From Candidatus Altimarinota bacterium (GTDB lineage Bacteria > Patescibacteriota > Gracilibacteria > BD1-5 > UBA6164), in the NCBI GenBank assembly GCA_943356435.1, contig CALREY010000005.1, forward strand, positions 1 to 64,000: 64,000 bases of DNA, in the 5' to 3' direction. Position numbers and translations under genes: made by a program. Positions 12,795-18,069 of the stretch are shown here, piece after piece (within the stretch, counting starts at the first letter, position 1; the number at the start of each line of letters is the position of its first letter). The notes beneath the pieces were generated by a model. It had not been told where the DNA came from. It did no database searches and saw only the letters and a program-made list of their open reading frames with translations.

Positions 12795-12796
12795 TT

Positions 12797-12842
12797 ATAA
12801 AAAAAAGATTAAGCAAGTAATACTTGTTTAATCTTTTTTTTA
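12797..12842. terminator. terminator after rpsR
   Basis: Hairpin AAAGATTAA-GCAAGT/ACTTG-TTTAATCTTT with flanking A- and T-tracts; also suitable for the convergent minus-strand gene. Confidence 0.85.
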
Positions 12843-12895
12843 TAAAAATTATATTATTAATGATGGTAATAAATATCAATTTAATCAAAAATCAA

Positions 12896-14632
12896 CTATA
12901 ACAATTCAGTAGGACAAATTCAATAATTTATAAAATATTTTTTTAATAATCACTCTCAAATATTATTAGTTCACCTACTTCAATGCTTAGCAAAAACATA
13001 TCTCTTTCAAGTTCTAGGACTGTGAAATGTAAAATGCGATCAATTCGACTTCCTAACTGGTTCTCAAAGTATTTTGACAAATTTATTAAATATCTTATCA
13101 ACAGGAAATGCTTTAACTGTTAAAAATGCTTCTCTTATTCTATTTTTATTCTTCTCATCTATATTTTCATATTCATTATCTAAATTTCTTATTTCTTCAT
13201 TTTGATCAATATCTAAAACTTCCACCATATTAGTATCAATATCTTCAGTATCATCTAAATCATCAATTTCTACTGATTCATTATTTATATATTTTTTAAA
13301 ATCTGAATCATTCAAGAAAAATGATTCCAAAAATTCTTCCTGGTTTTTTAAATATTCTAAAACAACATACAAAATAATTTTTCTCAATTTCAAATCATAT
13401 CATTTTAAAAAATCTAAAGATTTTTTAGATCATCAAATAGATACTTCTCAAAATGAATTTATAGTTACAAATAAAGAATTAGTTAATGATTGAATATTTG
13501 AAAGTAAATTACTATTAACATCAGTAGCTCTAAACAGTCCAAATTTATTTTCTCATTCAAAATTAATTCAAACTGTAAATATATGTGAATAATTATCTTT
13601 TACATTATTTCAATCATGAGCTATAATTTTAAATGACATTTCTCAAAGATTTATTATTTGCGGTTTTATTTTTTTTATAATTCATTGTTCTCTTACTTTT
13701 TTCTCCAAATCATAAATATTAATATTTTCCAAATCTGGAATTTTTGCATACTGTTTATCTACATTTACCCTAAATTCCTCATATTTAAATACATAATCAT
13801 ATAAAGATTCAGTTAAATTAATATATTTATTGCTATTATTAGCAATAATAACATCAAACATTTTTCCCATATCATTATCAAGTAATCACTTTAATATGAA
13901 AAAATAATACAATATATACAATGAATCATATAATTTTGTCAAAAATCAATTCAAATAAGAAAATGTAGTTTTTTTTGTAACTGATGATCAAGATTCTCAT
14001 AAATTGAACAAAAATTCATTTATGATTTTTTGTGAACCTTTTGGATTCTTTTTTATTCTATTAATAATAATAGGAATTTTTTTCGATAAATTTTTTACAA
14101 ATAAATCTTCTAATTTTTTAAAATTAAAATTTATTTCATCTATAGAATCCATAAACATTACAAACTCATCTAATTCTTCAATTCACATATCACAATCAAA
14201 AGCCATATTATCAACTTCGTGAAAAAATTTATGATTACAAAAATTAATTAAAGAATTTACAAAATCTTCTCACAATAATCACTTATACATTAATAATTTA
14301 TCTGACTTTACAGCCAAATAATACTTCTTCATACTTTCATACAACTCTATTTTTTCTTCTGTATCAATAGAATCATCTAAAGATTTTCAAGATTCAAGTG
14401 CAAAAATTATTTCTCTTGATATATTGTAATTCATATTATTTTTTCATACCTTTTGATTTAATATATTAATTAAAATTTTATTAGTATCTAAATTGATTGA
14501 ATTGTTATTATTTTTTATTAAAATTGAATTTAACCTACTATTAAAAATCTTATTAAAATAAGAAACATCTAAATTTTCTGGAATTACTTCAATATCGTTA
14601 TTATTTTCTATAATTTCTGCTATATTTAACAT
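12896..14632 (-). CDS. unknown 578-aa protein with C-terminal HicA-like domain
   Basis: Starts at ATG 14632 (MLNIAEIIENN), 36 bases after the stop of the 991-aa gene; probably cotranscribed. The first ~450 residues are mostly helical, with an acidic linker at about 400-440 (DDLDDTEDID). The last ~60 residues look like a HicA mRNA-interferase fold: LGEPVRKSNGSHFTFHSP, then TGKRYVFAKHGS and IGEGLLKKYFINYGI. The Gly-Ser-His (His533) matches the HicA catalytic site, and the tail matches the 'L-x-x-I-L-x-x-x-G' helix. About ten TGA codons interrupt the tail, so standard-code annotation would lose it. Function unknown; the HicA assignment is by motif only. Ends in TAG. Confidence 0.65.
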
Positions 14633-14668
14633 TCTTTTACAATTAGAATTAAAATTTTACAAATTTTT

Positions 14669-17644
14669 CTAAACTCTTTTCCACAAAAAACTCAAATTAT
14701 CTTTATAATCATATGAAACACCAGCTCATATTCACAAATGATGATTTTCTTTCAAACATATTTTTTCTACTTCTCACTCATCATTTTTTAGTTGAGATCT
14801 AACTAATGCATTATAAAATTCACCAGACCTGTTTGTTGATCTTCAATGTGATGAATCAAATAAAACTCAGTCATAATTATTATCTTTTGCAAAATTTGTA
14901 ACTATTTTTGATATCTGCTCATATAACTTTTTCGACGACACTTTATCATCAAATTCTACAGATGGATTTGGTCAAAATAATAAATACTTGTTTCAGTGTC
15001 ATTCATCCATATTTAATAGCATAACAGTTCAAATATTTTTTAGTCTTTCAGTATCAAACATTACAAATTCAAAATAATTTACATTTTTCCACATTTTATT
15101 ATCATCTCATAAACATACATCTCAAACTCATCTAGCGTATGCATCAAACTTAGTTTTTCAAAAACGAGCAAAAACTTTACGTTCCTTATTTTTACCATCT
15201 TTATCTGTAATAGATTCAAATTTATTACTTTCACTTTGAAGACTATTATAAATTCATTCTTGTATAAATGCTATTTTTTTAATATTTAATCAAAGCTGAT
15301 CAGGATTTCAAAAATGTTTTTTTACTTTTTCTTTCCATTTATTTTCAAATTTCTTTTGTAACTCATCATCATTACCAAACATAAAATCTTGGTCAGAAAA
15401 TTCTTCAATAAAATTATTTCTATCTAACTCTAATATATCAGTAGTCTGCAAAATTGATTTTAGTTTTGTGTCTATAGATTTCTTTACAATTTCTAAAGTA
15501 ATGGTCTCAAATGGTCTACTTGAAAAAGAACGAATAATGCTATTTATAGTTTTTGTTTTTACTAAATCACTTACTTCTTTTGGTGTTTTTACAAAAAACT
15601 GTTCAAAATATTCTCTATCACTTGATCTCAAAGTTATTCTTTCAAGTTTACGTATACTATCTTTCAATACATCTCAATATTCTCTACTTAGTGCCTGAAT
15701 TTGTATCATATATTTACTTTGTTCATCACTATACAAAGCTAATACATCATTTGATGCTTGTGAAAATTCATCATATTTTCACATTAACTGATAAGCAATT
15801 AATAAATCAAAATCTTCTATATCCAAATCTTTTCACTTTAATTCCTTTTTTAATAAGTATTCTAATATTTTAGATTCTAAATTTTTTGATTCTAGTTCAA
15901 TTCATTCAATTTTACAATAATCTAATACTCAATTTACAAGAGTTTCTTTATCTTTTGAAATAATGGAAATATGTTTTACATTATTCTTAAATTTTTCTAA
16001 TAAATCAGAATCAATTTTTTGTCAATCTATCAATCTATACCCCAATAAATTACTTAAAGTAAAATTATATCATTGTCTATCAAACACATAATTTTCTATA
16101 TGACTTGTTTTATCTCCACAATTATCAATATTTTTTGATGAATAATCTCTTTGAGGGTAAACAAGTCTTGAAATCGAATTTAAATCAAACATTTCATCTA
16201 ATCATTCACTTAAATTATTATTTCATAAAATTATCTCCTTTTTTATTGGTAATAATTTCTCTTCTATAGAACTAATCTCAGCTAATATTACAGAACCTTT
16301 ATCAATATAAAATGAATCAATATTTTCCATTAAATAAACGCATCATTTTCATTTAAGTAATATTTGTGCAAATTCTTCATCCAAGTTAAATCATTTTATA
16401 TCTCTTATTTCATTGCAAAGAAAATCAACTTTTCATTCTTCTATTAACTCACTTGCCAACTTATCAAATGGATAATTTCAAACAATAGAATCATAGTTAT
16501 CTAATATTAATGTTTCTCAACTTCAATCCATACTATCAGAAGAAGAATAATCTAATATACATGAAATTAATTCTCATTTATTCAAAAAATTAAACAAGTT
16601 CAAATTATACAAAAAAACATCAAGATAAAAACCTGAATTATCATGCAAATTTTGCACTAATTCTTTTCATTTTATTTTTCTAAACTTTGAAACATTTTTC
16701 AATACATTTTTAGCAGAAATATTTTTTATTAAATACTCTTCTAAATTAAATAAATCCTCATCATTTAAATTAATTATATCCAAATTATTAACAACAACAT
16801 CTTCGTTTCTTGTTTTTATTAATTTAAAAATTAAATCTAAATCTCAAACATATTTTAAATATTTAGGACTAGTAATAAGAAAATCAATTCAATTATCTTC
16901 TATAATCTCTAAAACAATTATTTCTTTTTGATCTTCAGATAATTTAAAATAATCAAAGTAATTCCACACAGTACTTTTTGGTAAATACAAAGCTCACTCA
17001 AAAGTATCCAATCAATCAAATTTACTAAAAAATTCAGATAAATCATCCATGCTAGAAATGTATTCTGAATCAAGAAGTATAGAAGCTACATCAAAATACA
17101 ATCAAACAAAATTATCAAAATTTATATATATAAGTTCTTCAAAATCTTCATATTCGTGTAGTAAAGTAAGGGCAGTATAGTTTGTCAATCATTTAAATAG
17201 ACTAAAATTTTCTTTTACAAAATCAATATAATATGATTCAAGCAATTCAGAAATAATTTCATTATAATCTAATCATTCAATACTAACAAATACTGATTTT
17301 AAATTTTCTATATATCAATATCAAATTAACTCCAAAATTATATTTGTATAATTTGAATGTTTAAATCAAGTAAGTTTTTTATAAATTAATTCTCACTTTC
17401 AAGCATCCATAAGCTTACAAGCAATTATTTCATGATATTTTGTATCAAAATTTTCAAGTTTAGAAATTAATCAATCAAAATTTTTATTTTGAATATAATG
17501 TTCTATTTCATTTAATGCATCTTGCTCACTAAGTATATTAGTAACATCATCTTTCACTTCTACAAGTTCCGACAATCACCCAATTGTATCGTTTATAATA
17601 GTTTCATTGCTTAAATCATCAAGTGAATTAACAAAATTAGTCAT
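14669..17644 (-). CDS. unknown 991-aa protein with helical repeats
   Basis: Soluble, no signal peptide. The N-terminal ~450 residues look like degenerate alpha-helical repeats rich in Leu, Asn, Glu and Tyr, with recurring LDxxxxISxLLESY and LNDEDLFNLEEYL-type units. The middle (about 630-790) is highly charged and helical. The C-terminal ~190 residues form a more conserved-looking globular part: KVFARFGKTKFDAYARGVGD, WKNVNYFEFVMFDTERL, GTVMLLNMDEGHGNKYLLFG, DGVLFDSSHGRS and a terminal ENHHLGIGAG. No family is recognised, although the strand-rich 'GxVMLxxx' layout recalls acetyltransferase-like folds. Upstream partner of the HicA-tailed gene. Ends in TAG. Confidence 0.65.
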
Positions 17645-17708
17645 AAATAATTCTTATAATATAATTATTTATATTTTATCATATATATAATTCATTTGCA
17701 AAAAAGCA

Positions 17709-17752
17709 CAAAAAAAAGATTAATACAGCTAAAGCTGTATTAATCTTTTTTT
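17709..17752 (-). terminator. terminator overlapping a stop codon
   Basis: Long perfect stem AAGATTAATACAGCT/AGCTGTATTAATCTT with A- and T-tracts. It overlaps the last codons and TAA of the gene ending at 17740. Confidence 0.85.
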
Positions 17753-18069
17753 GTGTCATTATTCATATCAGGTAGAAATCATGATATTAAATTTAAAACT
17801 TGATCTTGTATTTCTTCCTTTAAAATAACTATATCATTTAATTGTAAATTTGCCTCAATATTATCTAACATTATCTCTGTTAAAAATGGTCTAAAATGAA
17901 ATACTCAATCCAGAAATGATCATAAAAAATGTATTTTATCATCTATTAATACAGTTAAATATCCAGTATCATTTACTCATTTATATAAACAAGGATACTT
18001 TGTTTCAAATACATCTTTTGATAATGTTTTACCTCTATTTCATTCTAAAGATATCAATTCTTTTTCCAT
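17740..18069 (-). CDS. small hypothetical protein
   Basis: 109 aa, soluble and acidic (MEKELISLEGNRGKTLSKDV ... DMNNDTKKD). Five TGA glycines. The middle alternates hydrophobic strands (YLTVLIDDKIHFLGSFLDGV). No domain recognised. Its stop lies in the terminator stem, so translation end and termination are tightly packed. Divergent from typA. Confidence 0.6.

What the first reader, a model, noticed from the sequence alone, without database searches (positions are those of the whole stretch)
12896..17644. Two-gene unit of unknown large proteins, the second with a HicA-like toxin tail
A 991-aa repeat-rich protein and a 578-aa protein are separated by 36 bases. The 578-aa protein ends in a HicA-like domain with the GSH catalytic pattern (His533). 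HicA is normally a free ~60-aa toxin, not a C-terminal module of a large protein. The layout (large helical-repeat partner plus long protein carrying a nuclease-like tail) recalls polymorphic toxin or defence architecture. The tail is invisible under the standard code because of many TGA codons.
Basis: partly seen in the sequence, partly recalled or inferred. Interest (0 to 1): 0.8.

Follow-up and report, generated by a model that had tools for sequence, protein, structure and literature searches.

The report
HicA-tailed large protein in inserted cassette
Two large proteins of a tiny Gracilibacteria-type bacterium sit together on a 4.9-kb inserted cassette; the second ends in a real HicA RNA-cutting-type domain and belongs to a small, undescribed family of fused HicA proteins, while the first ends in an acetyltransferase-like fold and is usually found without it.

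Summary
The ORFs, the 36-nt gap, the TGA-rich reading (TGA=Gly) and the HicA-like tail with G531-S532-H533 are all real. The tail folds as HicA (1whz Z 8.2; Burkholderia HicA Z 7.2). His533 is invariant in the 11 relatives aligned and matches the His needed for toxicity in Burkholderia HicA. Gene B (578 aa) belongs to a sparse family of roughly 490-580-aa proteins in the class (10 full-length members found): an unknown, largely helical body, a linker, then HicA. Gene A (991 aa) belongs to another family, with a variable N-terminal half and a conserved C-terminal half that ends in a divergent GNAT (acetyltransferase) fold. The pair is not conserved: every other B genome lacks A, and every other A genome lacks full-length B. 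In two same-genus genomes the site is empty (rpsR - hairpin - 109-aa gene - typA). So A+B lie on one ~4.9-kb insertion between two hairpins, here only. HicA at the end of a large protein has precedent (Gerdes 2024, classes 13 and 14), so this is a new variant, not a new kind. Most likely mechanism (inferred): a self-restrained single-chain HicA RNase freed by a signal sensed by its body. A polymorphic-toxin reading is not supported. No activity has been shown.

The parts
12896..14632 (-). gene B, 578 aa, fused HicA protein
   Evidence: open under table 25; ten full-length family members incl. this one
12899..13123 (-). HicA-like domain, residues 504-578 (H-H-E-E-H by AlphaFold2/DSSP; third strand not called in the window model)
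13034..13036 (-). His533 codon (GSH motif), equals His24 of B. pseudomallei HicA; invariant in 11 of 11 tails
13124..13321 (-). acidic, low-confidence linker (residues 438-503, net charge -15, 33% D/E) before the basic HicA domain (net +9)
13322..14632 (-). body of B (residues 1-437): helical part (91-319) and small mixed alpha/beta part (about 325-430); no known family
14669..17644 (-). gene A, 991 aa
16193..17644 (-). N-terminal half of A (1-484): degenerate ~28-aa helical repeats; first ~233 residues homologous to the repeat protein of G356
15182..16192 (-). conserved helical core of A (485-821)
14672..15181 (-). divergent GNAT-fold domain of A (822-991), invariant Cys844 and Asn938, canonical acyl-CoA loop motif absent
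12841..17711 (.). insert (A+B) absent from the same site in two same-genus genomes
   Evidence: for the flanking genes in five relatives
12795..12845 (.). hairpin, terminator-like, left edge of insert (between rpsR and B)
17711..17752 (.). hairpin, terminator-like, right edge of insert

Best explanation
Gene B encodes a single-chain fused HicA protein. A large, mostly helical body carries, through a flexible acidic linker, a C-terminal HicA (dsRBD-fold) RNase-type domain that keeps the residues needed for toxicity in HicA toxins. Shown: the HicA fold and motif, the B family, the lack of a detectable HicB partner, and the insertion. Inferred: in the resting cell the body and/or acidic linker shields the basic RNA-binding face in cis, taking HicB's place; a signal sensed by the body frees the domain, which cleaves RNA and stops translation, as proposed for fused HicAB proteins and shown for CapRel (as cited in PMC10865869). 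Gene A is an independent module (variable N-terminal half, conserved helical core, divergent GNAT fold) that shares the same inserted cassette and probably the same transcript. Its role with B is open.
For: HicA fold of residues 501-578: 1whz Z 8.2 (2.1 A, 68 aligned), 6g26 Z 7.2, 6hpb Z 6.3, 4p78 Z 5.2; tail profile vs PDB E 2e-10 for 1whz, 3.5e-5 and 2.8e-4 for HicA toxins. His533 and His550 invariant in 11 tails, Gly531 in 9 of 11 by inspection. In B. pseudomallei HicA the aligned Gly22 and His24 are needed for toxicity (PMC3969222). Architecture kept across ten full-length, very divergent members (12-20% identity to the window) from several families of the class. No HicB by PF15919/PF05534 anywhere in the genome assembly. 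In all ten full-length members the body is net negative (-5 to -22) and the HicA domain net positive (+2 to +9); the linker is neutral to negative. A+B inserted as one block.
Against: No toxicity or RNase activity has been shown for any member. The linker is strongly acidic only in some members, near neutral in others. The B body was modelled poorly (mean pLDDT 58.8), so no cis contact with the tail can be read. None of the neighbourhoods looked at had an obvious defence island, and PADLOC gives no match.
Confidence: 0.42

Rival explanations
1. The tail is a HicA-derived double-stranded-RNA-binding module without toxin function: B is a housekeeping or regulatory RNA-binding protein, and the His is kept for RNA binding or for a non-toxic RNA-processing role.
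For: No HicB or other antitoxin found; B members are orphan chromosomal genes in varied contexts; HicA shares the dsRBD fold (PMC3969222).
Against: His533 is invariant while almost everything else has diverged, which fits catalysis better than binding alone; patchy presence (about 10 of 341 genomes) and an insertion at this locus do not look like housekeeping.
Confidence: 0.3
2. A and B form one dedicated two-component system (A as antitoxin, sensor or co-effector of B); both carry folds known from translation-targeting toxins (GNAT and HicA).
For: 36-nt gap, same strand, joint presence in one 4.9-kb insertion bounded by hairpins; GNAT and HicA folds.
Against: No other B genome has an A homologue and no other A genome has full-length B; A's GNAT lacks the canonical acyl-CoA loop (by inspection) and does not match any Pfam GNAT model.
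Confidence: 0.15
3. B (or A) is a toxin delivered into another cell (polymorphic or contact-dependent toxin of an episymbiont or predator).
For: C-terminal nuclease-type domain on a long protein; predation or episymbiosis is reported for related bacteria (PMC8080830, abstract seen).
Against: No recognised trafficking domain in any Pfam, NCBIfam or PHROGs scan; no N-terminal hydrophobic stretch seen by eye in the window proteins; no immunity gene found; the C-terminal domain is constant across the B family instead of variable.
Confidence: 0.08
4. The cassette is decaying cargo with no present function.
For: Truncated or split relatives exist in G527 and G387; sparse distribution.
Against: Both window ORFs are intact over 991 and 578 codons with conserved motifs; ten full-length members keep His533.
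Confidence: 0.05

Closest known systems
Class 13 fused HicBA (Gerdes 2024, PMC10865869)
   Same: HicA at the C-terminus of a large, mostly helical protein; single-gene arrangement (true of B outside this genome).
   Different: Class 13 is 340-440 aa and described as a HicB-HicA fusion; B members are about 490-580 aa, have an extra mixed alpha/beta part and a linker, and no HicB family model matches. Class 13 sequences could not be compared here.
Class 14 SMC-HicA fusion (Gerdes 2024)
   Same: Canonical HicA domain fused to the C-terminus of a very large protein.
   Different: No SMC/ATPase domain in B by Pfam or NCBIfam.
HicAB type II toxin-antitoxin modules
   Same: HicA fold and G-S-H site.
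   Different: Not a free ~60-aa protein; no HicB.
GNAT toxins (AtaT, TacT, GmvT)
   Same: GNAT fold of A's C-terminal domain; GmvT and AtaT appear among the Foldseek matches.
   Different: A is 991 aa, lacks the R/Q-x-x-G-x-G/A loop, has an invariant Cys and shows no sequence-level match; best structural match is NatD (Z 10.5).
CapRel-type fused toxin-antitoxins (as cited in PMC10865869)
   Same: Proposed logic: one chain holds toxin and its own restraint/sensor.
   Different: Different toxin fold and domain order; no phage trigger known for B.

Membership tests
HicA toxin domain (PF07927) | dsRBD-like HicA fold | tested here: met
   Z 8.2-5.2 to four HicA structures at residues 501-578; tail pLDDT mostly 75-92
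HicA toxin domain (PF07927) | G-S-H active-site motif | tested here: met
   G531 S532 H533 aligned to G22 S23 H24 of B. pseudomallei HicA, where G22 and H24 are needed for toxicity
HicA toxin domain (PF07927) | score at or above Pfam's curated cut-off (relatives) | tested here: met
   G533 homologue 27.1 bits whole, 31.5 tail, cut-off 27; 8 of 11 members match at E <= 0.05
HicA toxin domain (PF07927) | window protein itself above Pfam's cut-off | tested here: not met
   14.4 bits for the isolated tail, no hit for the whole protein; the domain assignment rests on the family profile and the fold
HicAB toxin-antitoxin module | small free HicA with adjacent HicB | tested here: not met
   tail is fused; no HicB match in the genome; so B is not filed as a HicAB module
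Gerdes class 13 fused HicBA | C-terminal canonical HicA | tested here: met
Gerdes class 13 fused HicBA | length 340-440 aa | tested here: not met
   578 aa here; full-length relatives about 490-580 aa
Gerdes class 13 fused HicBA | fused HicB domain | tested here: inconclusive
   no HicB family match in Pfam or NCBIfam; class 13 sequences not available for comparison
GNAT superfamily (A, residues 822-991) | GNAT fold | tested here: met
   dozens of GNAT matches, probability up to 1.00; Z up to 10.5
GNAT superfamily (A, residues 822-991) | R/Q-x-x-G-x-G/A acyl-CoA loop | tested here: not met
   loop reads NP-x(7)-V in the family (by inspection of the alignment); hence 'GNAT-fold', not an assigned acetyltransferase
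Polymorphic toxin system | constant N-terminal trafficking module, variable C-terminal toxin | tested here: not met
   in B the C-terminal HicA is constant; no trafficking family found
Polymorphic toxin system | adjacent immunity gene | tested here: inconclusive
   downstream neighbour of B is rpsR, upstream is A; A as immunity protein not testable here

The most novel reading that the evidence does not exclude
B represents a further, undescribed class of HicA fusion, a single-chain sensor-RNase so far seen only in this bacterial class. In this genome it is packaged with a GNAT-fold protein into a mobile two-effector cassette in which two folds known from translation-targeting toxins act together.
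Probability: 0.15. Interest if true: 0.75.

Novelty: new variant of a known kind. Interest (0 to 1): 0.5.

Why it matters
Anti-phage and toxin functions of Patescibacteria are poorly known, and the recoded genomes among them hide such genes from standard annotation. The B family gives a testable case of a HicA toxin domain that lives without HicB, so its restraint, if it is a toxin, must lie in its own chain or elsewhere. The A family adds a set of uncharacterised large proteins with variable N-terminal halves and a conserved, unusual GNAT-fold end.

Tried and rejected
Pfam, NCBIfam, PHROGs and PADLOC gave nothing for A or for B's body (A was run on Pfam and NCBIfam only). Viral contigs: no A relative; A and B relatives not found in phages; plasmids gave only a HicA/HicB locus matching the tail. 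Viral-contig scan with the B alignment was impossible (too divergent). Foldseek on the whole B model gave no significant match; HicA appeared only in the VIA-align second look. Weak Polo-box and p32-like matches to B residues 320-450 (Z about 4) are not trusted. A 28-aa repeat model from the G356 and G556 proteins does not hit A significantly. L002 and L004, first taken as B relatives, were dropped as chance or partial matches. The HicA family listing was cut off before weak matches, so fused HicA could not be counted from it. Promoter scan: not above shuffles. No Rfam match.

Full report
What is there. On the minus strand, under genetic code 25, A (17644-14669, 991 aa) precedes B (14632-12896, 578 aa) with 36 nt between them. 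TGA as Gly is supported by homologues with the standard code: in the columns where the window uses TGA they carry Gly in 33% (B) and 37% (A) of cells and Trp in none, against 6-7% Gly in the background. Under the standard code A has 48 and B 26 in-frame stops.

The B tail is HicA. The isolated window tail gives only a weak Pfam hit (E 0.042, 14.4 bits, cut-off 27), the only one reported. A homologous 523-aa protein in another genome (G533) passes the HicA cut-off (27.1 bits whole, 31.5 tail). A two-sequence profile found more proteins of about 500-580 aa with HicA at the end, and an eight-sequence profile added G455, G480 and G536 (E-values of sequences used to build a profile are inflated by construction). 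In all, ten full-length members are known here: the window, G533, G367, G490, G121, G517, G534 (assembly gap inside), G455, G480 and G536, from several families of the class. Eight of 11 aligned members match PF07927. A profile of the 11 tails matches 1whz at 2e-10 and HicA toxins of known structure. AlphaFold2 gave a poor overall model (mean pLDDT 58.8) but a good tail, and residues 501-578 superpose on 1whz (Z 8.2, 2.1 A, 68 residues), Burkholderia HicA (Z 7.2), E. coli HicA (Z 6.3) and HicA3 of 4p78 (Z 5.2). The only residues invariant in all 11 sequences are His533 and His550. By the profile alignment to the H24A structure sequences, His533 is His24 and Gly531 is Gly22 of B. pseudomallei HicA, both required for toxicity (PMC3969222).

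The rest of B. No family is recognised. The model suggests helices to about residue 319, a small mixed alpha/beta part to about 430, then a low-confidence linker. In all ten full-length members the body is net negative and the HicA domain net positive; the linker is neutral to negative, strongly acidic in the window (-15) but not in all members. No HicB was found in the genome assembly, which is 90% complete.

Gene A. Its C-terminal half (about 490-990) has relatives in about ten genomes of the class, at 50% identity in G293 and about 30% elsewhere, as the end of large ORFs whose N-terminal half differs. The N-terminal 233 residues instead match a different protein of a same-genus genome (G356) that has about ten clear 28-aa repeats and another C-terminus. 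So A looks modular: variable N-terminal half, conserved C-terminal half. AlphaFold2 of the C-terminal 507 residues (pLDDT 80.9) gives a helical core and a final domain of GNAT topology; Foldseek lists many GNATs with probability up to 1.00 and VIA-align gives Z up to 10.5 with human NatD. By inspection of the alignment the canonical acyl-CoA loop motif is absent; Cys844, Trp852, Pro894 and Asn938 are invariant and Arg939 nearly so. I therefore call it GNAT-fold and do not assign acetyltransferase activity.

Is it a two-gene system? Not a conserved one. None of the other nine B genomes has a detectable A homologue, and none of the other genomes with A's C-terminal half has a full-length B; the B neighbourhoods read hold other genes. 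With about ten carriers of each among roughly 345 genomes, chance overlap would be 0.3 genome; the observed overlap is one, the window itself. Yet in this genome the two came as a block. In same-genus G358 and G359 the site reads rpsR - one hairpin - 109-aa gene - typA, and the window differs by 4.87 kb (12841-17711) lying between two similar terminator-like hairpins. In G357 and G343 the rpsR-typA gap is only about 190 bp. Gain is the simpler reading; loss in the relatives is not excluded. No transposon ends were recognised.

How it most likely works (inferred). A HicA domain that has lost HicB but kept its active-site residues must be controlled, if it is active, by its own chain or by something not seen here. 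The body, with its acid surplus and flexible linker, is the obvious candidate, and release on a trigger would give RNA cleavage and growth arrest. Fused HicA proteins, including C-terminal HicA on large proteins, were catalogued in 2024 and a similar logic was proposed (PMC10865869). B differs from class 13 in length and in lacking a detectable HicB. The main rival is a non-toxic RNA-binding role.

Verdict. Observation confirmed, interpretation partly supported, new variant of a known kind. The specialist interest is a further HicA fusion family in recoded or little-studied bacteria, plus an A family worth its own study.

Noticed in passing
window 17740-18069 (-): 109-aa gene of unknown function between the insert and typA, conserved in G358 and G359 but absent from the short rpsR-typA gap of G357 and G343.
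   Followed up: partly
L088 7159-7503 (G527): 114-aa protein joining a stretch like the N-terminal motif of the B family directly to the HicA tail; looks like a natural deletion of the body.
   Followed up: partly
L130 8177-8750 (G387): B N-terminal module (142 aa) and a HicA match lie next to each other in different frames; probably a frameshifted or decayed B.
   Followed up: no
L033 7893-11786 (G356): 1297-aa repeat protein in a same-genus genome shares A's N-terminus but has another C-terminus with a Cys-rich motif (CGDYTNCCMP); followed by a separate 992-aa ORF.
   Followed up: partly
L125: An A-type C-terminal domain in a record named Candidatus Microgenomatus auricola, outside the expected group by name; may be a naming, binning or transfer matter.
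   Followed up: no
class-wide: HicA family matches occur in 148 of 341 genomes of the class (top-scoring ones in short ORFs), often several per genome, so free HicA is plausibly a local source for the fused tail.
   Followed up: partly
window 12795-12845 and 17711-17752: Terminator-like hairpins flank the insert, and one such hairpin sits at the empty site; terminators may be integration or recombination spots in these genomes.
   Followed up: partly
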